Shown here: positions 13,220-22,950 of the stretch, piece by piece
Position numbering within the stretch: position 1 is the stretch's first letter
Layout: each line of letters starts with the position of its first letter
Assembly (NCBI RefSeq): GCF_014901205.1
Contig: NZ_JACNMU010000006.1
Span: 62,001-126,000 of the forward strand
Length of the DNA stretch: 64,000 nt
DNA from: Meridianimarinicoccus sp. MJW13
GTDB taxonomy: Bacteria > Pseudomonadota > Alphaproteobacteria > Rhodobacterales > Rhodobacteraceae
Direction of reading: 5' to 3'
Made by a program: the position numbers and the translations under genes
The notes under the pieces: generated by a model
The model's database searches: none
What the model was told of the DNA's origin: nothing
Seen by the model: the letters and a program-made list of their open reading frames with translations, nothing else

Positions 13220-14590
13220 TCAGAGCGCGGCAGCCGCTCCGGACCCGCCAGAGGTCGAGAGTTCTTCGGCCACAAGGAACGCCAGTTCCAGCGATTGCGA
13301 GGCATTCAGGCGCGGATCGCAAGCGGTGTGATAGCGCGAGGACAGGTCATCCTCGGTCACGTCGCGCACGCCGCCGGTGCATTCGGTCACGTCCTTGCCG
13401 GTCATTTCGAAATGCACGCCGCCGGGATGGGTGCCCTCGGCCTTGTGGATGGCGAAGAATTCGCGCACTTCGCGCAGCACGCTGTCGAAGGGCCGGGTCT
13501 TGTAACCGGTCGCCGACTTGATGGTGTTGCCGTGCATCGGGTCGCACGACCAGACCACGTTGGCGCCTTCCTCCTGCACGGTCTTGATCAGTCGCGGCAG
13601 ATGCTCGCCCACGCTGCCCGCGCCGAAGCGGGCGATCAGGGTCAGACGTCCGGCTTCGTTATTGGGGTTCAGCTTCTCCATCAGCACCTTGAGATCTTCA
13701 ACGGTGGTGGTGGGCCCGCATTTCAGACCGATGGGGTTTTGTACGCCGCGGCAGAATTCCACATGCGCGCCATCGGGCTGACGGGTGCGGTCGCCGATCC
13801 ACAGCAGATGTCCCGAACCCGCCACCGGCTTGCCGGAGGTGGAATCGATCCGGCACAAGGCTTCTTCGTATTCCAGCAGCAGCGCTTCATGGCTGGTGTA
13901 GAAATCCACCGTGTGCAGGGTCGGCGCCACTTCCGATGACACGCCGGCGGCGTTGATGAAGTCCAGCGCATCCGAGATGCCGTTGGCCATCTCGCTGTAG
14001 CGGTCGATCTCGGCCTTGTCGGTGAAACCCAGCGTCCAGGCGTGCACCTGGTGCATGTCCGCATAGCCGCCCTGGCTGAAGGCGCGCAGCAGGTTCAGCG
14101 AGGCCGCGGCCTGGGTGTAGGCCTGCAACATCCGCCGCGGATCGGGAATGCGCGCTTCCGGGGTGAAGTCGATGTCGTTGATGATGTCGCCACGGTAGGA
14201 TGGCAGTTCCACACCACCGATGGTTTCCGTCGCCGCCGAGCGCGGCTTGGCGAACTGCCCGGCCATACGGCCGATCTTGACCACCGGCACCTTGGCGCCC
14301 CAGGTCAGCACCATCGCCATCTGCAGCATCACCTTGAAGGTGTCACGGATCGAATCCGCGCTGAACTCGCCAAAGCTTTCGGCGCAGTCGCCGCCCTGCA
14401 ACAGGAAGGCCTCGCCGCGTGCGACCTTGGCCAGTTCGGACTTCAGCGTGCGCACTTCGCCGGCAAAGACCAGCGGCGGATAGCTTGAAAGCTGGCTTTC
14501 AACGGCTGCAAGCGCATCTGCATCGGTATAATCCGGCATCTGCACCCGGGGCTTCGTTCTCCAGTCTGATTTCATCCATGAGTTGGTCAT
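13220..14590 (-). CDS. aroG: Class II 3-deoxy-7-phosphoheptulonate (DAHP) synthase
   Basis: 456 aa, plant-type (class II) DAHP synthase catalysing the first step of the shikimate pathway from PEP and erythrose 4-phosphate. Diagnostic blocks: [11 protein letters not shown] with the metal-binding Cys, [40 protein letters not shown] and [12 protein letters not shown]. Start ATG 14590 has GGAGG five bases upstream; an apparent open extension further upstream lacks family similarity and is discarded. Stands alone, convergent with the PAS_5 gene. Symbol usage for class II enzymes varies between genomes. Confidence 0.94.
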
Positions 14591-14786
14591 GGGAGCCTCC
14601 GCTATATCTGGCCCGAGTTGTTTGAGCCGGCTCTGCCTATAGCCGCTAACATTGGAAATGAAAACACGCTTGCAGCGGCTGATTGCTGCGGGCGCGGGGC
14701 GTCTGGGCGGAATATTCAAGCTTCCTCTGGACCCGGCCTTCCAAGTCAGGCTTCTATACGGCACCAAGACCGGCCAGGAGCGTCCC

Positions 14787-15767
14787 ATGACCTCACCCCT
14801 ACCGCCCACCGAGACGCGGCGCTTCGTCTTTGTTCTATTGCCGAAATTCAGCCTGCTGGCCTTTGCCGCGGCAATCGAGGCGCTGCGCCTGGCCAACCGG
14901 ACGGCGACCCGCGAGGTGTTTTCCTGGAGCCTGGTGGGCGAGGATGCGGGGACCGCCACCTGTTCGGCGGGCACCAGCTTTGCCCTTGATGGCGGGCTGG
15001 AGGAGTTGCGGCGGGAAGATGTCATCGTGCTGTGCGGCGGTCTGGATATTCAGGACGCCAGCACCAAGCGCCTGCTGAACTGGTTGCGACGCGAGTCGCG
15101 GCGCGGCTGTACAGTGGCCGGCCTGTGCACCGGCGCGCATGTCATGGCCCGGGCCGGGTTGCTGGACGGGCGCAAGGCCACGATACACTGGGAAAACTAC
15201 GACAGTTTCGCCGAGGATTTCCTGGATGTGGATCTGACCAAGTCGGTCTTCGTGATGGATGGCAACCGCTATACCTGTGCCGGGGGCACCGCGGCCATCG
15301 ACCTGATGCTGAAACTGGTGGCCAATACCGCCGGCAACGATATCGCCTCGAACGTGGCGGACATGCTGATCTATTCCTCGATCCGCACCGATCAGGACAC
15401 CCAGAGGCTGTCGATCCCGACCCGGATCGGGGTGCGGCATCCCAAGCTGGCGGCGGTGATCCAAGAGATGGAACAGAACATCGAAGAGCCGATCAGCCCG
15501 TCGATCCTGGCCCGTGACGTGGGCCTGTCGACGCGGCAACTGGAACGGTTGTTCCGGCGTTATCTGAACCGCTCGCCCAAGCGATACTACATGGAGTTGC
15601 GGCTACAGAAAGCGCGCAACCTGCTGATGCAGACCGATATGAGCGTCATCAATGTGGCGCTGGCCTGCGGGTTCACCTCGCCGTCGCATTTTTCCAAATG
15701 CTACCGCGCGCAATACGAGACCACGCCCTACCGTGAACGCGGGGCGCAGGCGGCGCAGGAAGACTGA
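14787..15767 (+). CDS. GlxA-family transcriptional regulator (DJ-1/PfpI-like domain plus AraC HTH)
   Basis: 326 aa from the ATG at 14787, which has AGGAG just upstream; an in-frame ATG at 14652 would add a 45-residue tail without family similarity. N-terminal glutamine-amidotransferase-like domain ([21 protein letters not shown], with a Cys nucleophile-type elbow [18 protein letters not shown]), C-terminal AraC double helix-turn-helix ([19 protein letters not shown] and [19 protein letters not shown]). This layout is shared by regulators of carnitine, choline and arginine catabolism (CdhR, GbdR, ArgR). The target cannot be deduced from the neighbours. Confidence 0.88.
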
Positions 15768-15772
15768 TCCGC

Positions 15773-15823
15773 CTCCGGCGGGAGTATTTGTGCCAAAAAG
15801 AAACAAGGGTCACTCCGCCGGAG
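15773..15823. repeat. Intergenic repeat-like element with GGAGTATTT and AAAAAGAAA, flanked by a 9-bp inverted repeat
   Basis: Between the convergent regulator and dehydrogenase genes. Arms CTCCGGCGG (15773-15781) and CCGCCGGAG (15815-15823) enclose GGAGTATTTGTGCC followed by an A-rich run. The GGAGTATTT...GCCAAAAAGAAA core resembles an intergenic element I recall as repeated in many Rhodobacteraceae genomes; only one copy is seen here. The right arm overlaps the 3' end of the dehydrogenase gene. Confidence 0.5.
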
Positions 15824-16928
15824 TAATGCGGTAGGCGGTGCCGTCGTTTTCCGACAGGAACCAGAGGCTGCCGTCCGGCGCTTCGCGAATGTCGCGGACT
15901 CGGCCAGTCTGCGGCGCCGATAGGCGTTCGGCCTCGGTCCGGGTCTCGCCGTCGATACGGCTGATCATGTCGAATTTCAGCGAGCCCGCGAAGATGTCGC
16001 CACGCCATTGCGGCCAGAGCTTGCCGGAATAGATCACCAGCCCGGACGGCGCGATGGAGGGATCCCAGTAGTGGGCGGGCTGCGCCATCCCCGGTTTCAC
16101 GGTGCCTTCGCCGATCCTTGCGCCCGAGTAGTGGCGGCCATAGGCGATCACCGGCCAGCCATAGTTGGCGCCCTTGCGAATGCGGTTCAGCTCATCCCCG
16201 CCGCGGGCGCCATGTTCGGTGATCCAAAGCTGGCCGCGCGCATCCAGGGCCGCACCCTGCGGGTTGCGATGGCCATAGGACCAGATTTCAGGCCGGGCGC
16301 CGGGGGTGGCGGTGAATGGATTGTCCGCCGGGGCCTGCCCGTCGCGGGTCAGGCGCAGGACGGTGCCGTTGTGGCGCGACAGATCCTGTGCGGCGGCGCG
16401 GTCGCCGCGATCGCCAATGGTCATGAAAAGGGTGCCATCGGGGGCCTCGACCAGACGCGCGCCGAAATGGCGGCCGCCGGAGCTTCCCTTCGCGATCTGG
16501 AACAGCTGCTGCACTTCCGTCAGGCGCGTGCCGTCCTTCGTCAGACGCCCGCGTCCCAGGGCCGTGCCACTGCCGCCCGGCTGGGGCTTGGCATAGGTAA
16601 AGAATACCTCGCGTCGGGTGGCGAAATCGCGCGGCACGAGGATGTCCAGAAGGCCGCCCTGCCCCGGTGTCGCGATCTTTGGAAGGCCCGTCACCGACGT
16701 CGCGCGGCCCTCGCGAACGTGCAACAAGCGCCCGTCGCGTTCGGTGATCAGCAGGCCGCCTCCGGGCAGGAACCCAAGCGCCCAGGGCATGTCGAGACCA
16801 GTGACCATCGGTGTGAGCGTCAGGCGACCGGCGGAACTGTCCACCGTTTGGGCGGTCGCAGAGAGGGACAGCCCGAGACCCAAAGTCACGATGGCGAGAA
16901 GGCGGAAGGAATGTCGAAGCGCGATCAT
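15810..16928 (-). CDS. Secreted PQQ-dependent sugar dehydrogenase family protein
   Basis: 372 aa with a signal peptide (residues 1-26, ending SATAQ) and a six-bladed beta-propeller of the glucose/sorbosone dehydrogenase (GSDH) type: LDMPWALGFLPGGGLLITERDGRL, GGLLDILVPRDF, SSGGRHFGARL, WSYGHRNPQGAALD and WITEHGARGGDELNRI. In YliI/Asd-like relatives the protein oxidises aldose sugars in the periplasm with PQQ. No PQQ synthesis genes are visible in the window. Divergent from the ABC operon to its right. Confidence 0.87.
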   Translation of the reverse strand: MIALRHSFRLLAIVTLGLGLSLSATAQTVDSSAGRLTLTPMVTGLDMPWALGFLPGGGLLITERDGRLLHVREGRATSVTGLPKIATPGQGGLLDILVPRDFATRREVFFTYAKPQPGGSGTALGRGRLTKDGTRLTEVQQLFQIAKGSSGGRHFGARLVEAPDGTLFMTIGDRGDRAAAQDLSRHNGTVLRLTRDGQAPADNPFTATPGARPEIWSYGHRNPQGAALDARGQLWITEHGARGGDELNRIRKGANYGWPVIAYGRHYSGARIGEGTVKPGMAQPAHYWDPSIAPSGLVIYSGKLWPQWRGDIFAGSLKFDMISRIDGETRTEAERLSAPQTGRVRDIREAPDGSLWFLSENDGTAYRITPAE

Positions 16929-17084: not shown

Positions 17085-18275
17085 ATGAAAAAACTGCTGA
17101 CGGCCACCGCCGTAACGGCATTGACTGCCGGGTCCGCTTTTGCAGCCGGCGAAGAAATCAAGATCGGTGTTCTTCTGGGCTTCTCGGGTCCGCTGGAATC
17201 GCTTGCCGGGCCGATGGCCGGTGGCGCGGAACTGGCGATTGCCGAAGTGAGCGAGAGCGGCATGCTGATGGATGGCGCCAAGGTCACGCCGGTGCGCGGC
17301 GATTCCACCTGCGTGGACGCGGCTGCGGCCACGGCGGCTGGCGAACGGCTGATCACCTCGGATGGGGTGGCTGCGATCATGGGCGCGATGTGTTCGGGCG
17401 CGACCGGCGCAGTGCTCAGCAACGTGGCCATGCCCAATGGCACGGTGATGATCTCGCCCTCCGCGTCTTCGCCCGGCCTGAGTGCCGCAGAGGACAACGG
17501 ATTGTTCTTCCGCACCGCGCCCTCCGATGCCCGCCAGGGTGTGGTGATGGCCGACATCATCACTGAACGCGGCATTTCGGAAGTCGCCGTGACCTATACC
17601 AACAACGACTATGGCAAGGGGCTGGCCGACAGCTTTGCCCAGGCCTTTGAAGCCGCAGGCGGCACCGTGACCATCGTCGCACCGCATGACGACGGCAAGC
17701 CGGACTATTCGGCCGAGGTTGCCACGCTGGCCTCCGCCGGCGGTGAAGCGCTGGTCGTGGCCGGCTATGTGGACGAGGGCGGATCGGGCATGATCCAGGC
17801 CTCGCTCGACACCGGTGCCTTTGACCTCTTCGTGCTGCCCGACGGCATGGTCAGCGACAAGCTGGAAGAGAACTTCGGCGATGCCATCGAAGGATCCTTC
17901 GGCCAGGCGCCGGGATCGAACTCGGACGGCGGCGCGCTTTACGAAGAGATGGCGACAGCCGCCGGTGTCGACGGTGCCTCGGTTTATTCCAAGGAAGCCT
18001 ATGATGCGGCGGCCTTGATCTTGTTGTCCATGCAGGCCGCGGGCTCGACCGCAGGCGCGGACTTCAAGTCCAAGATCATGGAAGTTGCCAACGCTCCGGG
18101 CGAGCCGATCCTGCCGGGTGAACTGGCCAAGGGTCTGGAAATCCTGAAGAATGGCGGCGACATCGACTATGTCGGCGCCTCTGCCGTGGAACTGATCGAA
18201 CCGGGCGAAGCCGCTGGCGTCTACCGTGAAATCGAGATCAAGGACGGCAAGGTCACGGAGGTCGGCTTCCGCTGA
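17085..18275 (+). CDS. ABC transporter substrate-binding protein, LIV (branched-chain amino acid) family
   Basis: 396 aa with a signal peptide (MKKLLTATAVTALTAGSAFA). Periplasmic binding fold type I: IKIGVLLGFSGPLESLAGPMAGGAELAI at the start, VAAIMGAMCSGATGAVL, and VAVTYTNNDYGKGLADSF are typical Peripla_BP_6/LivJ-type segments. GGGAG lies upstream of the ATG. First gene of an operon containing two ATPases, two small secreted proteins and two permeases. Ligand is unknown: amino acid, amide or urea are all possible for the family. A 12-bp hairpin follows the stop codon. Confidence 0.9.
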   Translation: MKKLLTATAVTALTAGSAFAAGEEIKIGVLLGFSGPLESLAGPMAGGAELAIAEVSESGMLMDGAKVTPVRGDSTCVDAAAATAAGERLITSDGVAAIMGAMCSGATGAVLSNVAMPNGTVMISPSASSPGLSAAEDNGLFFRTAPSDARQGVVMADIITERGISEVAVTYTNNDYGKGLADSFAQAFEAAGGTVTIVAPHDDGKPDYSAEVATLASAGGEALVVAGYVDEGGSGMIQASLDTGAFDLFVLPDGMVSDKLEENFGDAIEGSFGQAPGSNSDGGALYEEMATAAGVDGASVYSKEAYDAAALILLSMQAAGSTAGADFKSKIMEVANAPGEPILPGELAKGLEILKNGGDIDYVGASAVELIEPGEAAGVYREIEIKDGKVTEVGFR

Positions 18276-18353: not shown

Positions 18354-19142
18354 ATGATAGCAGTCGAAAATCTGCACAGGCATTTCGGAGGGTTTCGGGC
18401 CGTTGACGGCGCGTCCCTGCGTATCCAGGACAAGTCGATCACCGGATTGATCGGGCCAAACGGCGCCGGTAAATCCACGCTTTTCAATGTGATCGCCGGT
18501 GTTCTTCCACCGACGTCGGGCCGTGTGACCATGGCGGGCGCGGATATCACCGGCCTGCCGCCGCACGAATTGTTTCACAAGGGGGTGCTGCGCACCTTCC
18601 AGATCGCGCATGAGTTCAGTTCGATGACCGTGCGTGAAAACCTGATGGTGGTGCCCGGCGCCCAAGCCGGTGAGACCCTTTGGAACGCCTGGTTCCGGCG
18701 CGCCGCAATCGCGCAGGAAGAAGCCACGCTGCGCAAGCAGGCCGACGAGGTGCTGGAATTCCTGACCATCGACCATCTGGCCGAGGAAAAGGCCGGCAAC
18801 CTGTCGGGCGGGCAGAAAAAGCTGCTGGAGCTGGGCCGCACCATGATGGTGGATGCGCGCATCGTCTTTCTGGACGAGGTTGGCGCCGGGGTGAACCGCA
18901 CCCTGCTGAACACCATCGGCGACGCCATCATTCGCCTGAACAAGGAACGCGGCTATACCTTCTGCGTGATCGAGCACGACATGGACTTCATCGGCCGCCT
19001 TTGCGACCCGGTGATCTGCATGGCCGAGGGCAAGGTGCTGGCCGAGGGGACGTTGGATGAGATCAAGGCCAACGAACAGGTGATCGAGGCCTATCTGGGC
19101 ACCGGCCTGAAGAACAAGGTTCAGGCGGAGGCCAGCACATGA
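18354..19142 (+). CDS. livG: LIV-type ABC transporter ATP-binding protein (LivG-like)
   Basis: 262-aa ATPase. Walker A GPNGAGKST, Q-loop RTFQIAHEFSSMTVRENLM, signature LSGGQKKLLELGR, Walker B IVFLDEVGAGVN, and H-loop VIEHDMDFI with the C-terminal LAEGTLDEIKANEQVIEAYLG tail typical of LivG (BCA_ABC_TP_C). Walker B carries Val-Gly-Ala where Pro-Thr/Met-Ala is more common. The stop overlaps the start of the second ATPase. The symbol is family-level; the substrate is not established. Confidence 0.9.
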   Translation: MIAVENLHRHFGGFRAVDGASLRIQDKSITGLIGPNGAGKSTLFNVIAGVLPPTSGRVTMAGADITGLPPHELFHKGVLRTFQIAHEFSSMTVRENLMVVPGAQAGETLWNAWFRRAAIAQEEATLRKQADEVLEFLTIDHLAEEKAGNLSGGQKKLLELGRTMMVDARIVFLDEVGAGVNRTLLNTIGDAIIRLNKERGYTFCVIEHDMDFIGRLCDPVICMAEGKVLAEGTLDEIKANEQVIEAYLGTGLKNKVQAEAST

Positions 19143-19849
19143 GCACACCTTTCCTGAATGCCGACAGCATGACCGGCGGCTATGGGGCCGCCGATATTCT
19201 GCATGGGTGCACGTTGTCCGTGGACAAGGGCCAGATCGCGGTGATCGTCGGGCCCAACGGCGCGGGCAAGTCGACTGCCATGAAGGCCGTGTTCGGGATG
19301 CTGAACCTGCGCGAGGGCAAGGTAACCCTTGGTGGACAGGATATCACCCATCTCAGCCCGCAGCAGCGGGTACATCTGGGCATGGGGTTCGTGCCGCAGA
19401 CCCACAACATCTTCACGTCGATGACGGTGCAGGAAAACCTGGAAATGGGGGCGTTCATCCGCACCGATGATTTCCGCGGCACCATGGACCAGGTGTTCGA
19501 ACTGTTTCCGATCCTGCACGAAAAACGCAATCAGGCCGCCGGGGAATTGTCCGGCGGGCAGCGTCAGCAGGTGGCGGTCGGTCGCGCGCTGATGACCAAA
19601 CCCACCGTACTGATGCTGGACGAACCCACGGCCGGGGTCAGCCCGATCGTGATGGATGAATTGTTCGACCGGATCATCGAAGTGGCGCGCACCGGCATTT
19701 CGATCCTGATGGTCGAACAGAACGCGCGCCAGGCGCTGGAGATTGCCGACAAGGGCTATGTTCTGGTGCAGGGGCGCAACCGCTACACCGATACCGGGGC
19801 CGCCTTGCTGGCTGACCCGGATGTCCGCAAGAGCTTTCTGGGCGGATGA
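19139..19849 (+). CDS. livF: LIV-type ABC transporter ATP-binding protein (LivF-like)
   Basis: 236-aa ATPase. Walker A GPNGAGKST, LSPQQRVHLGMGFVPQ, signature LSGGQRQQVAVGRAL, Walker B VLMLDEPTAGVSP and H-switch LMVEQNARQALEIADKGYVL, the LivF hallmark. Pairs with the LivG-like protein to power import. Overlaps both neighbours by 4 nt (ATGA), including the small secreted protein gene downstream, which shows tight coupling. Confidence 0.9.
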   Translation: MSTPFLNADSMTGGYGAADILHGCTLSVDKGQIAVIVGPNGAGKSTAMKAVFGMLNLREGKVTLGGQDITHLSPQQRVHLGMGFVPQTHNIFTSMTVQENLEMGAFIRTDDFRGTMDQVFELFPILHEKRNQAAGELSGGQRQQVAVGRALMTKPTVLMLDEPTAGVSPIVMDELFDRIIEVARTGISILMVEQNARQALEIADKGYVLVQGRNRYTDTGAALLADPDVRKSFLGG

Positions 19850-20265
19850 CCGGCATGGGAGTTGTCATTGCAGCAGGCGCGCTTGCGGGCACGCCATCGG
19901 TGTCGGGGGCGGAGTTTCCGCCTGTCGGCACCCGCATGACCTGCACCTTCACCGAGGCCTGCATCGACCGCCGCCCTTGTTTCGACAGCCGGGCGCAGGT
20001 TGCGATTCAGGTGGTGGACGACGCGCTGGCCCTGCTGGATCTGGGCGAAGGTCAGCTGCGGCCGGCCCGCATCCTGCGCGAAGGTGTCTGGACCAGCTAT
20101 CAAACCGAACCGGATCGCGACCACGGGTTGCGCACCCAGATCCTGGACATGGCCGAAGACGGGCGTGCATCGCTGGTCGTCTCCAGCCCCGGCGAGGCCG
20201 TGGGTATGCTGAGCCGCACCGGCACCTGCATCCGCCTGCCCGCGTCAGAGGAGACCACCCCATGA
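19846..20265 (+). CDS. Small secreted four-cysteine protein, first of a paralogous pair
   Basis: 139 aa, not recognised. The N-terminus has a short hydrophobic stretch (GVVIAAGALAG) and a plausible signal cleavage after VSGA. Cysteines lie at 33, 39, 45 and 128: pattern CTFTEAC-x5-C early and RTGTC near the end. The same pattern and a TQILDMAEDGRA-like block recur in the next gene, so the two are diverged duplicates. Both ends overlap neighbours by ATGA (ATPase before, paralogue after), placing it firmly inside the transporter operon. A periplasmic accessory role is inference only. Confidence 0.75.
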   Translation: MTGMGVVIAAGALAGTPSVSGAEFPPVGTRMTCTFTEACIDRRPCFDSRAQVAIQVVDDALALLDLGEGQLRPARILREGVWTSYQTEPDRDHGLRTQILDMAEDGRASLVVSSPGEAVGMLSRTGTCIRLPASEETTP

Positions 20266-20639
20266 CAGTCTTTCCTTTCCGCCCTGCCCTTGTCGCTGCA
20301 AGCCTTGCCCTGGCTCCCGGTCTGGCCGCCGCACAAAGCGTCGAGGTCGAATGTGTCTTTACCCTGGAGTGCTATGAGGCCGAGGCCTGCAACGAGGCCA
20401 ACTTCAACCTGCGCGTCGGCAAGGGCGACAGCCCAACCGAAGCCGTGGTGCGCACGCCGGCGGAAACCTTTTCGGGCAATGTCGAGGGGCATGACAGCAC
20501 CTCGCTGGTCTGGACCACCCGGACCGCCACCACCGCCCAGATCCTCAGTTGGGGCGCAGACGGCAGCGCCCGCTATACCCTGCATCTGACAGACGGCCCG
20601 GCCGTGGTCTCTTATCACGGGCATTGCGAGGCAAAATGA
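20262..20639 (+). CDS. Small secreted four-cysteine protein, second of a paralogous pair
   Basis: 125 aa, not recognised. Clear signal peptide, MTVFPFRPALVAASLALAPG followed by LAAAQ. Cysteines at 31, 37, 43 and 122: CVFTLEC-x5-C and YHGHC, with the same 6+6 residue spacing as the upstream paralogue; AQILSWGADGSA aligns with its TQILDMAEDGRA. The start ATG overlaps the previous stop and its own stop overlaps the permease start (ATGA both times). It is probably periplasmic with two disulfides. Function unknown. Confidence 0.8.
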   Translation: MTVFPFRPALVAASLALAPGLAAAQSVEVECVFTLECYEAEACNEANFNLRVGKGDSPTEAVVRTPAETFSGNVEGHDSTSLVWTTRTATTAQILSWGADGSARYTLHLTDGPAVVSYHGHCEAK

Positions 20640-21649
20640 CCGACTTCCTCAACGCCTTTATCGTTCTGGCCAACTTCGTGCTGGTGCCGGGCATCGCCTA
20701 TGGCAGCCAGCTGGCGCTTGGAGCGCTTGGCGTGACGCTGATCTTCGCGATACTGCGGTTCACCAATATCGCCCATGGTGACACCATGGCTTTCGGGGCG
20801 ATGATCACCATCTTCGTGACCTGGGCGCTCCAGGCTGCCGGGGTGTCGATCGATCCGCTGCCGACGGCCTTGCTGGCCCTGCCCGTGGGCATTGCCGCCA
20901 CCGCCGTGCTGGTGCTTGCCACCGATCGGTTTGTTTACCAGTTCTACCGCAAGCAAAAGGTGGAACCGGTGATGCTGCTGATCGTATCGGTCGGCGTGAT
21001 GTTCGTGATGAACGGGCTGGTGCGCTTCATCATCGGCCCCGACGATCAGCGTTTCACCGATGGCGAACGCTTCATCATCTCGTCCCGCACCTTCAAGGAA
21101 ATGACCGGCCTGGCCGAAGGGCTGGCGATCAAGACCACGCAGGGCATCACCGTGGTCACGGCGATCCTGACCGTGGCGGCGCTGTTCTGGTTCCTGAACC
21201 GCACCCGCATGGGCAAATCCATGCGCGCCTATTCCGACAATGAGGATCTGGCGCTGCTGTCCGGCATCAACCCCGAACGGGTGGTGGCGGTAACCTGGGT
21301 GATCGTGGCGGCGCTGGCGACCATCGCGGGCGTGCTTTACGGCCTTGATAAAAGCTTCAAGCCCTTCACCTATTTCCACCTGCTGCTGCCGGTCTTCGCC
21401 GCGGCCATCGTCGGTGGTCTGGGCAATCCGCTGGGCGCGATCGCCGGCGGCTTCGTCATCGCCTTTTCCGAGGTGACGCTGACCTATGCCTTCAAGCGGG
21501 TGATCGGATACCTGGTGCCGGAAGGGATGGAGCCCTCGGGTCTCGTCCAGCTTCTGGCCACCGATTACAAATTCGCGGTCAGCTTCGCGATCCTTGTGAT
21601 CGTGCTGTTGTTCAAGCCCACGGGGCTGTTTGCGGGGAAAAACACATGA
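20636..21649 (+). CDS. livH: LIV-type ABC transporter permease (LivH-like)
   Basis: 337-aa inner-membrane permease with about eight helices. Family blocks: YGSQLALGALGVTLIFAILRFTNIAHGDTMAFGAM near the start and YSDNEDLALLSGINPERVVAVTWVI before the last helices, then VGGLGNPLGAIAGG. ATG at 20636 overlaps the preceding stop. Forms the channel with the LivM-like partner encoded next. Confidence 0.9.
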   Translation: MTDFLNAFIVLANFVLVPGIAYGSQLALGALGVTLIFAILRFTNIAHGDTMAFGAMITIFVTWALQAAGVSIDPLPTALLALPVGIAATAVLVLATDRFVYQFYRKQKVEPVMLLIVSVGVMFVMNGLVRFIIGPDDQRFTDGERFIISSRTFKEMTGLAEGLAIKTTQGITVVTAILTVAALFWFLNRTRMGKSMRAYSDNEDLALLSGINPERVVAVTWVIVAALATIAGVLYGLDKSFKPFTYFHLLLPVFAAAIVGGLGNPLGAIAGGFVIAFSEVTLTYAFKRVIGYLVPEGMEPSGLVQLLATDYKFAVSFAILVIVLLFKPTGLFAGKNT

Positions 21650-22950
21650 GCCAGACAATGCGTGGCACGCTCCTGTTCCTGCTGGTGGCAGGCCTCATCC
21701 TGGCCACCGGGTTTTTGCAAAGCTGGAACTCGGCCCTTCTGATCCTGAACATGGGGTTGATTTCGGCGATCATGGCGCTGGGGGTGAACCTGCAATGGGG
21801 GTTCGCCGGTCTCTTCAACGTCGGCATCATGGGCTTTGTCGCCCTGGGCGGTCTGGCCGTGGTGCTGACCTCGATGCCTCCCGTGGGGGCTGCCTGGGCG
21901 GCGGGCGGGGCGCGGATGCTGCTGGCGCTGGCCGTGGGCGCCGGGGCCATCGTCGCGGCCATCTTCGCTTGGAAGTCCGTCACGCCCGGCCGCAAGCGGG
22001 CGCTGGTCATGACGGCGGTTCTGGTCGTTGGTTACATCGTGTACCGGCAGTTGTTCGATCCGGCCCGCGCCGCGATCGAGGCGGTGAACCCGACCCTAGA
22101 AGGCTACCTTGGCGGCGCCGGTCTGCCGGTGGTGTTCTCCTGGCCCGTGGGCATGGCGCTGGCGGCCGGGGCGGCCTGGCTGATCGGCAAGACGGCGCTG
22201 GGGCTGCGCTCTGACTATCTCGCCATTGCCACGCTGGGGATCTCGGAAATCATCATCGCTGTGATGAAGAACGAGGACTGGCTGAGCCGCGGCGTCAAGA
22301 ACGTCAATGGCTTGCCCCGCCCGATGCCTTATGAGGTCGATCTGCAAAACGATCCCGGCTTTGTCGAGGCCGCCACGGGCTATGGTCTGGATCCGGTGAC
22401 CGCCTCGACCCTGTACGTCAAGGCGGGCTACAGCCTGTATTTCACCGTCGTCCTGATCCTGCTGCTGGTGCTGGCGCAATTGGCCCTGCGGTCGCCCTGG
22501 GGCCGGATGATGCGCGCCATCCGCGACAACGAGGTGGCGGCGGCGGCCATGGGCAAGAACATCAAGAAGCGGCACCTGCAGATCTTCGTTCTGGGTTCGG
22601 CGGTTTGCGGTCTGGCGGGGGCGATGATGACCACGCTGGACGGCCAGTTGACCCCGGCCACCTATCAGCCGCTGCGCTATACCTTCCTGATCTGGGTGAT
22701 GGTGATCATCGGCGGCTCGGGCAACAATTTCGGCGCAGTTCTGGGCGGGTTCCTTGTCTGGTTCCTGTGGGTGCAGGTCGAGCCGCTGGGACAGGTGTTC
22801 CTGCAGGTGGTCACCAGCCCGCTGACCGATGGCAGCCCGCTGAAAGAGCATCTGCTTGATGGCGCGGCCTACATGCGGCTTCTGACCATGGGGCTGCTGC
22901 TGCTGGTGGTGCTGCGGTTCAGCCCGCGCGGGTTGCTGCCGGAACGCTGA
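21646..22950 (+). CDS. livM: LIV-type ABC transporter permease (LivM-like)
   Basis: 434-aa permease. LivM hallmarks: LISAIMALGVNLQWGFAGLFNVGIMGFVALGG, LRSDYLAIATLGISEIIIA, GRMMRAIRDNEVAAAAMGKNIKKRHLQIFVLGSAVCGLAGAM and GGSGNNFGAVLGG. Somewhat longer than many LivM proteins owing to extra helices around residues 90-130. Last gene of the operon, coupled to the LivH-like gene by a 4-nt overlap. Confidence 0.9.
   Translation: MSQTMRGTLLFLLVAGLILATGFLQSWNSALLILNMGLISAIMALGVNLQWGFAGLFNVGIMGFVALGGLAVVLTSMPPVGAAWAAGGARMLLALAVGAGAIVAAIFAWKSVTPGRKRALVMTAVLVVGYIVYRQLFDPARAAIEAVNPTLEGYLGGAGLPVVFSWPVGMALAAGAAWLIGKTALGLRSDYLAIATLGISEIIIAVMKNEDWLSRGVKNVNGLPRPMPYEVDLQNDPGFVEAATGYGLDPVTASTLYVKAGYSLYFTVVLILLLVLAQLALRSPWGRMMRAIRDNEVAAAAMGKNIKKRHLQIFVLGSAVCGLAGAMMTTLDGQLTPATYQPLRYTFLIWVMVIIGGSGNNFGAVLGGFLVWFLWVQVEPLGQVFLQVVTSPLTDGSPLKEHLLDGAAYMRLLTMGLLLLVVLRFSPRGLLPER

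What the first reader, a model, noticed from the sequence alone, without database searches (positions are those of the whole stretch)
19846..20639. Paralogous pair of small secreted four-cysteine proteins inside a LIV-type ABC transporter operon
Two adjacent unrecognised genes share the order C-x5-C-x5-C near the mature N-terminus (CTFTEAC and CVFTLEC cores), a QIL...DG block and a last Cys in GTC/GHC near the end. They sit between the ATPase and permease genes, joined to each other and to both neighbours by ATGA overlaps, so they are made with the transporter. Both look secreted. I know of no described accessory subunit of LIV transporters with this pattern. They might bind ligand, stabilise the binding protein or sense redox in the periplasm; this is inference.
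Basis: partly seen in the sequence, partly recalled or inferred. Interest (0 to 1): 0.72.

Follow-up and report, generated by a model that had tools for sequence, protein, structure and literature searches.

The report
Periplasmic barrel proteins in LIV operon
Two small secreted proteins encoded inside an amino-acid importer operon belong to an undescribed, fast-changing family of predicted disulfide-held beta-barrels found at this place in many relatives, sometimes in several copies, often lost, and in a few genomes kept although the importer is gone.

Summary
In detail: coordinates, four-cysteine pattern, QIL..DG block and ATGA overlaps are in the sequence. P1 and P2 are distant paralogues: pairwise BLAST fails (E 0.17), but a profile of P2-type proteins finds P1 at 4e-6. 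Their family has no match above cut-off in Pfam or NCBIfam. With a wide profile 87 of 248 genomes of the window's bacterial family match; I count 80 of these 87 with a member beside livF and/or livH of the LIV operon, a few also at livG-livF. Up to four tandem members occur; other junctions are empty. Both proteins are predicted as eight-stranded beta-barrels with Cys1 and Cys4 on the first and last strands; Cys2 and Cys3 are mostly lost together. The genes are under purifying selection but change several times faster than the transporter. Against a strict subunit: two genomes keep two or three members at the ancestral locus without an orthologous transporter, and one has an empty slot with two members behind a TRAP-like permease. 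I favour a dispensable periplasmic partner of the importer (0.42); an independent inhibitor-like barrel expressed from the operon is almost as likely. My literature searches found no description.

The parts
17085..18275 (+). substrate-binding protein of the LIV-type importer
   Evidence: relative of LIV-binding proteins (NF011933 4.9e-31, below its cut-off; PDB 4n0q 1.5e-23)
18354..19142 (+). livG-type ATPase
   Evidence: PRK11300 2.3e-60, below its cut-off
19139..19849 (+). livF-type ATPase; overlaps livG by ATGA
   Evidence: best UrtE 5.4e-68, LivF 3.2e-64, both below cut-off
19846..20265 (+). P1: four-Cys barrel protein, secreted by homology; overlaps livF by ATGA; single-sequence matches only in the window's genus among 61 genomes searched
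20262..20639 (+). P2: secreted four-Cys barrel protein, of the widespread branch of the family; overlaps P1 and livH by ATGA
20636..21649 (+). livH-type permease
21646..22950 (+). livM-type permease

Best explanation
P1 and P2 are members of a new family of small periplasmic proteins: eight-stranded antiparallel beta-barrels closed by a disulfide between the first and last strands (Cys1-Cys4), usually with a second one at the first turn (Cys2-Cys3). The family lives in a variable-content slot of the LIV operon of the window's bacterial family, is translated in step with the importer, duplicates in tandem and is often absent. My committed mechanism: they are dispensable, protein-binding periplasmic partners of the LIV importer, most likely touching the substrate-binding protein or the periplasmic face of LivH/LivM and tuning delivery or stability. 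Shown: family, linkage, turnover, purifying selection. Predicted: fold. Inferred: disulfide pairing, periplasmic site, the partner and its effect.
For: Linkage: 54 of 57 genomes with an A1-profile match have one within 2 kb of livH; 80 of 87 with the wider profile A7 have a member next to livF and/or livH (my hand count); 29 of 29 named loci lie between livF and livH (L065 and L066 seem to be one contig in two assemblies). Members also occur at the livG-livF junction (5 of 87 operons; L188-L191). ATGA coupling. Purifying selection: P2 dN/dS 0.13-0.30 in 9 pairs, P1 0.42 in one pair (dS near or above 1 in most pairs, so rough). Fold: P2 pLDDT 87.3, P1 81.3, the same eight strands. Of 1640 ORFs of the window and 28 loci, the 37 profile hits are all slot genes (the profile holds many of them, so the control is the absence elsewhere).
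Against: G153 and G175 keep 3 and 2 members behind the GlxA-type regulator at the ancestral locus without an orthologous transporter; one pair of these is 33% identical, so if orthologous they have been kept for long. G114 has an empty LIV slot and two members behind a TRAP-like permease. 23 of 40 LIV loci without A1 match have a junction of at most 168 bases. Occupancy changes at least 19 times on a tree of 87 operons, hardly clustered (shuffled mean 21.9; 42 of 500 as low), odd for a real subunit. Old co-inheritance alone could keep the linkage. No complex was modelled.
Confidence: 0.42

Rival explanations
1. Stand-alone periplasmic inhibitor or immunity-type barrel that works like MliC/PliC or Neisseria ACP: it blocks an enzyme or agent that reaches the periplasm, and uses the LIV operon only as an expression site. 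Loss, gain, duplication and fast change follow the presence of the target.
For: Architecture as described for MliC/PliC/ACP: about 100 residues, eight strands, cysteines on strands 1 and 8 (passages of PMC5507604). Members persist without the transporter and turn over fast; up to four tandem copies; dN three to six times that of livH in nine pairs.
Against: Neither P1 nor P2 has the motifs SxSGAxY or YxxxTKG; of 139 member entries two, both from one genome, match one of them. No MliC profile match in 32 members at E <= 0.5. Gene-average dN/dS is well below 1. Linkage to one transporter would need another cause.
Confidence: 0.33
2. Calycin-type ligand carrier that binds a substrate in the barrel and hands it to the substrate-binding protein, as AztD does with zinc for AztC.
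For: Foldseek lists lipocalins, fatty-acid binding proteins and biotin-binding avidins among weak matches; AztD is a precedent for a periplasmic helper of an ABC importer in Paracoccus (search listing and starts of abstracts).
Against: No PDB match at E <= 0.001; the barrel is short, leaving little room for a pocket (inference); in 113 members only the cysteines and one Gly are invariant or nearly so, so no conserved pocket is seen.
Confidence: 0.13
3. Redox or disulfide-exchange sensor of the periplasm coupled to the importer.
For: Four conserved cysteines.
Against: Cys2 and Cys3 are lost together in 10 of 139 members, and in 3 of 6 aligned P1 sequences, while Cys1 and Cys4 stay: the pattern of structural disulfides.
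Confidence: 0.04

Closest known systems
LIV/BraC-type branched-chain amino-acid ABC importers (LivKHMGF)
   Same: The five core genes of the operon are relatives of this importer.
   Different: I recall no small secreted barrel genes in the described importer; here the junctions livF-livH and sometimes livG-livF carry 0 to 4 of them.
MliC/PliC lysozyme inhibitors and Neisseria ACP
   Same: Predicted eight-stranded antiparallel barrel of about 100 residues with cysteines on strands 1 and 8.
   Different: No sequence-profile match, motifs absent in P1 and P2, extra Cys2-Cys3 pair, encoded in a transporter operon.
AztD, periplasmic zinc protein of the AztABCD importer
   Same: An extra periplasmic protein encoded with an ABC importer and acting on its binding protein (works-like precedent, listing and abstract starts).
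   Different: P1/P2 are small four-Cys barrels with no conserved metal-ligand set seen; AztD's fold is recalled as different; it serves zinc.
Calycin-like barrels: lipocalins, avidins, NHBA and TbpB barrel domains
   Same: Beta-barrel; weak Foldseek matches.
   Different: No match at E <= 0.001 in the PDB; cysteine pattern and genomic setting differ.

Membership tests
MliC/PliC-type lysozyme inhibitors | eight-stranded antiparallel beta-barrel of about 100 residues | tested here: met
   AlphaFold2 models with eight strands, P2 pLDDT 87.3, P1 81.3; prediction only, barrel closure judged from strand order and Foldseek matches
MliC/PliC-type lysozyme inhibitors | disulfide between strands beta1 and beta8 | tested here: inconclusive
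MliC/PliC-type lysozyme inhibitors | motifs SxSGAxY and YxxxTKG | tested here: not met
   absent from P1 and P2; 2 of 139 member entries, both from one genome, match one of them
MliC/PliC-type lysozyme inhibitors | sequence-profile match (Pfam) | tested here: not met
   32 P2-type members: no MliC profile at E <= 0.5; ten unrelated models, each hit by one member
MliC/PliC-type lysozyme inhibitors | inhibits lysozyme | not testable with these tools
   needs purified protein
LIV-type ABC importer (the operon) | binding protein, two ATPases, two permeases of the Liv families | tested here: met
   all below NCBIfam cut-offs, so the substrate is not assigned
dedicated subunit of the LIV importer (P1, P2) | present with the transporter and absent without it | tested here: not met
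   empty slots; members without the orthologous transporter in G153 and G175; behind a TRAP-like permease in G114
dedicated subunit of the LIV importer (P1, P2) | physical contact with binding protein or permease | not testable with these tools
   only single chains can be modelled
calycin/lipocalin-like barrels | significant structural match | tested here: inconclusive
   no PDB match at E <= 0.001; best 1.7e-3 (P2) and 1.1e-2 (P1)

The most novel reading that the evidence does not exclude
The livF-livH and livG-livF junctions of this importer are a cargo slot: a place where periplasmic barrel proteins of one undescribed family are swapped, multiplied and lost, acting as inhibitor or immunity proteins that shield the importer or the cell envelope from a variable periplasm-reaching threat, with the importer operon as carrier.
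Probability: 0.2. Interest if true: 0.8.

Novelty: new variant of a known kind. Interest (0 to 1): 0.6.

Why it matters
LIV importers are among the best-known bacterial transporters, and an extra periplasmic component was not expected. If the barrels act on the importer, they are a new way of tuning amino-acid uptake in a widespread family of largely marine bacteria. If they do not, a transporter operon serves as carrier for a fast-changing family of periplasmic proteins. The natural experiments found here (slot empty, slot full, importer gone with barrels kept, barrels moved behind a TRAP-like permease) make the choice testable.

Tried and rejected
A chance cysteine pattern was rejected: profile test against 1000 shuffles and invariance of the cysteines. 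A frame artefact was rejected: dN/dS well below 1. A phage or mobile origin found no support: no relative in viral contigs with P1, best PHROG match of 32 members E 0.069; the structure search of viral models gave three matches at E <= 0.001 and one named LprI-like at 1.0e-3, which I take as shared barrel fold. MliC membership was rejected. Several P2-type members carry a [ST]GxGAxY stretch (seen) that recalls the MliC motif; by alignment it falls at the beta5-beta6 turn of the P2 model, not at beta4-beta5, and I treat it as coincidence, untested. The class-wide search (narrow profile A1) matched only the window's own genome among 240. In the order search all 38 matching and all listed non-matching genomes are of the window's own family (63 of 121 were not listed), so it says nothing about other families. 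The wider profile A7 was not run outside the family. The literature searches gave nothing on these proteins.

Limits: the occupied/empty sample of the tree was not random (chosen by LivH score and by having members). Its label counts 5 slots with no recognised member as occupied. The iterative profile may hold a few wrong-frame ORFs and counts some genomes twice. The P1 model used 13 P2-type rows of 15. Handles G030 and G559 were not examined.

Full report
Observation. P1 is 19846-20265 (139 aa) and P2 is 20262-20639 (125 aa). livG/livF, livF/P1, P1/P2, P2/livH and livH/livM are joined by ATGA overlaps. Both have C-x5-C-x5-C, a QIL...DG block and a last Cys in GTC/GHC. The other genes are a LIV-type binding protein, LivG, LivF, LivH and LivM by family search, all below curated cut-offs, so the substrate is open. 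The window's genome has one copy of the pair by DNA search, and the wide profile finds two matches there, P1 and P2.

The family. P1 has one Pfam match, far below cut-off (E 0.17), P2 none; NCBIfam none. The 32 P2-type members have only single stray hits, and no PDB sequence matches their profile at E <= 10. P1 as a single sequence matched 6 of 61 genomes, all of the window's genus. P2 matched 42 of 248 genomes of the bacterial family, the profile A1 57 of 248, and a profile of 113 diverse members (A7) 87 of 248. In a class-wide sample A1 matched only the window's genome among 240. Starting from A1, an iterative search among 213 ORFs of 130 places (some genomes are present twice) joined 139 ORFs; 101 of 106 occupied places held a member and 30 places held two to four. 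As a control, 1640 ORFs of the window and 28 loci gave 37 hits at E <= 1, every one a slot gene.

Linkage. 54 of the 57 genomes with A1 matches have one within 2 kb of livH. All 29 loci found in the named genome collection by a peptide pattern, with no regard to place, lie between livF and livH. With A7 I count 80 of 87 genomes with a member beside livF and/or livH. G114, G134, G153, G163, G175 and G233 are not linked and G030 was not checked; the G233 and G030 matches are weak and in long frames. G261 has a further unlinked copy. Members also sit at the livG-livF junction in 5 of 87 operons (four shown).

Exceptions that matter. In the window a class II DAHP synthase (-) and a GlxA/AraC-type regulator (+) lie to the left of the operon (names from sequence, recalled); the regulator is found in 17 and the synthase in 16 of 29 named loci within the DNA held. 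In G153 the same two genes are followed directly by three family genes with overlapping ends, and there are no liv genes in the 12.5 kb. Its best LivH is a 39% paralogue elsewhere, in an operon whose livF and livH leave no room for a barrel gene. In G175 the same locus has two family genes and no liv genes, and the genome has no LivH at the threshold. One protein of each locus can be paired at 38 of 115 identical residues; if they are orthologues, they have been kept for long without the transporter. In G114 the LIV slot is empty (five bases between livF and livH) and two members follow a TRAP-type large permease (named from sequence, recalled) on another contig. G251 has its operon split at the slot.

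Turnover. Of 40 LIV loci without A1 match (taken from the best LivH scores), 23 had a junction of at most 168 bases, 15 held a small secreted-looking ORF (12 of these 15 places joined the family), one had 281 bases without such an ORF and one had no livF in the stretch. Of 24 empty junctions printed, 17 read stop-NNN-ATG. Within one genus (g80) three of four genomes searched have a member and one has none. On a tree of LivG/F/H/M from 87 operons (62 occupied, 25 empty; not a random sample) occupancy needs at least 19 changes, 12 of them forced by well-supported branches, against 21.9 on average for shuffled labels (42 of 500 as low). The tree cannot tell gain from loss.

Selection. In nine pairs of relatives P2 has dN/dS 0.13-0.30, and P1 0.42 in the one pair available; livF and livH have 0.01-0.12. 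dS is near or above 1 in most pairs, so the ratios are rough. These look like real, constrained genes whose dN is about three to six times that of livH.

Structure and cysteines. AlphaFold2 gives P2 pLDDT 87.3, pTM 0.74 and eight strands (29-38, 44-54, 60-64, 69-78, 81-87, 91-97, 102-109, 114-124); P1 pLDDT 81.3, pTM 0.70 and eight strands in the same order. Cys1 is in strand 1 and Cys4 in strand 8; Cys2 is near the end of strand 1 and Cys3 just before strand 2. Of 139 members 127 have all four, 10 lack Cys2 and Cys3 together, one lacks Cys2 alone and one Cys1 alone. In the P1 alignment 3 of 6 have lost exactly Cys2 and Cys3. This argues for Cys1-Cys4 and Cys2-Cys3 disulfides; distances were not measured. 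Foldseek against the PDB finds only weak barrel matches (NHBA, TbpB, lipocalins, avidins, fatty-acid binding proteins and others; none at E <= 0.001). From passages of PMC5507604, MliC/PliC and Neisseria ACP are eight-stranded barrels with a disulfide between strands 1 and 8, the closest described architecture I know; their motifs and Pfam profile are not found here.

How it works. Shown: a family without a described model, in-operon, coding, under purifying selection, with fast turnover. Predicted: barrel. Inferred: periplasmic place and disulfides. For function I lean to a dispensable periplasmic partner of the importer because of the linkage at two junctions and the translational coupling. 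The rival, an independent inhibitor-like barrel that uses the operon for expression, explains better the copies without transporter, the empty slots and the tandem growth; the two cannot be told apart here.

Print. Searches for liv genes with Rhodobacteraceae, Roseobacter, Rhodobacter or Ruegeria terms and for accessory proteins of ABC importers gave no paper on such proteins in their listings. Of the listed papers I saw passages of PMC11921356, which names livK, livF and livH as up-regulated in a coculture and mentions no extra gene in those passages. Preprints and most papers of subscription journals are not held.

Noticed in passing
window 13220-15025 (-), 14652-15767 (+): Class II DAHP synthase and a GlxA/AraC-type regulator (names from sequence, recalled) lie left of the LIV operon; the regulator is within the DNA held in 17 and the synthase in 16 of 29 named loci, a conserved neighbourhood that may regulate the importer.
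   Followed up: partly
L128 5512-6814; L184 4467-5413: Transporter-free versions of the locus: family genes directly behind the GlxA-type regulator, with a gene of similar N-terminal sequence (penicillin-acylase-like, recalled) further on in both.
   Followed up: yes
L188 2918-3322, L189 5625-6032, L190 5028-5411, L191 3503-3883: A second place at the livG-livF junction holds members that resemble, by eye, unlinked ones beside an integrase/resolvase (L130) and alone (L181).
   Followed up: partly
L052, L057 and L061, binding-protein gene: L052 and L061 (livF 97%, livH 94% identical) have binding proteins only 65% alike, while L052 and L057 share 94%: one binding protein may have been swapped.
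   Followed up: no
L186 (G251): LIV operon split at the slot: SBP-livG-livF plus two family genes on one contig, livH on another.
   Followed up: no
L019 684-1118, L128 6404-6814, L183 4492-4920, L184 4826-5413: Some members have an N-terminal hydrophobic segment far from the barrel that looks uncleaved, and one (L176 4464-4853) a lipobox-like LTAGC, so anchored forms of the barrel may exist (by eye).
   Followed up: no
window 15810-16928 (-): PQQ-type sugar dehydrogenase-like gene (name recalled) between the regulator and the operon; a relative is found in 11 of 29 named loci.
   Followed up: no
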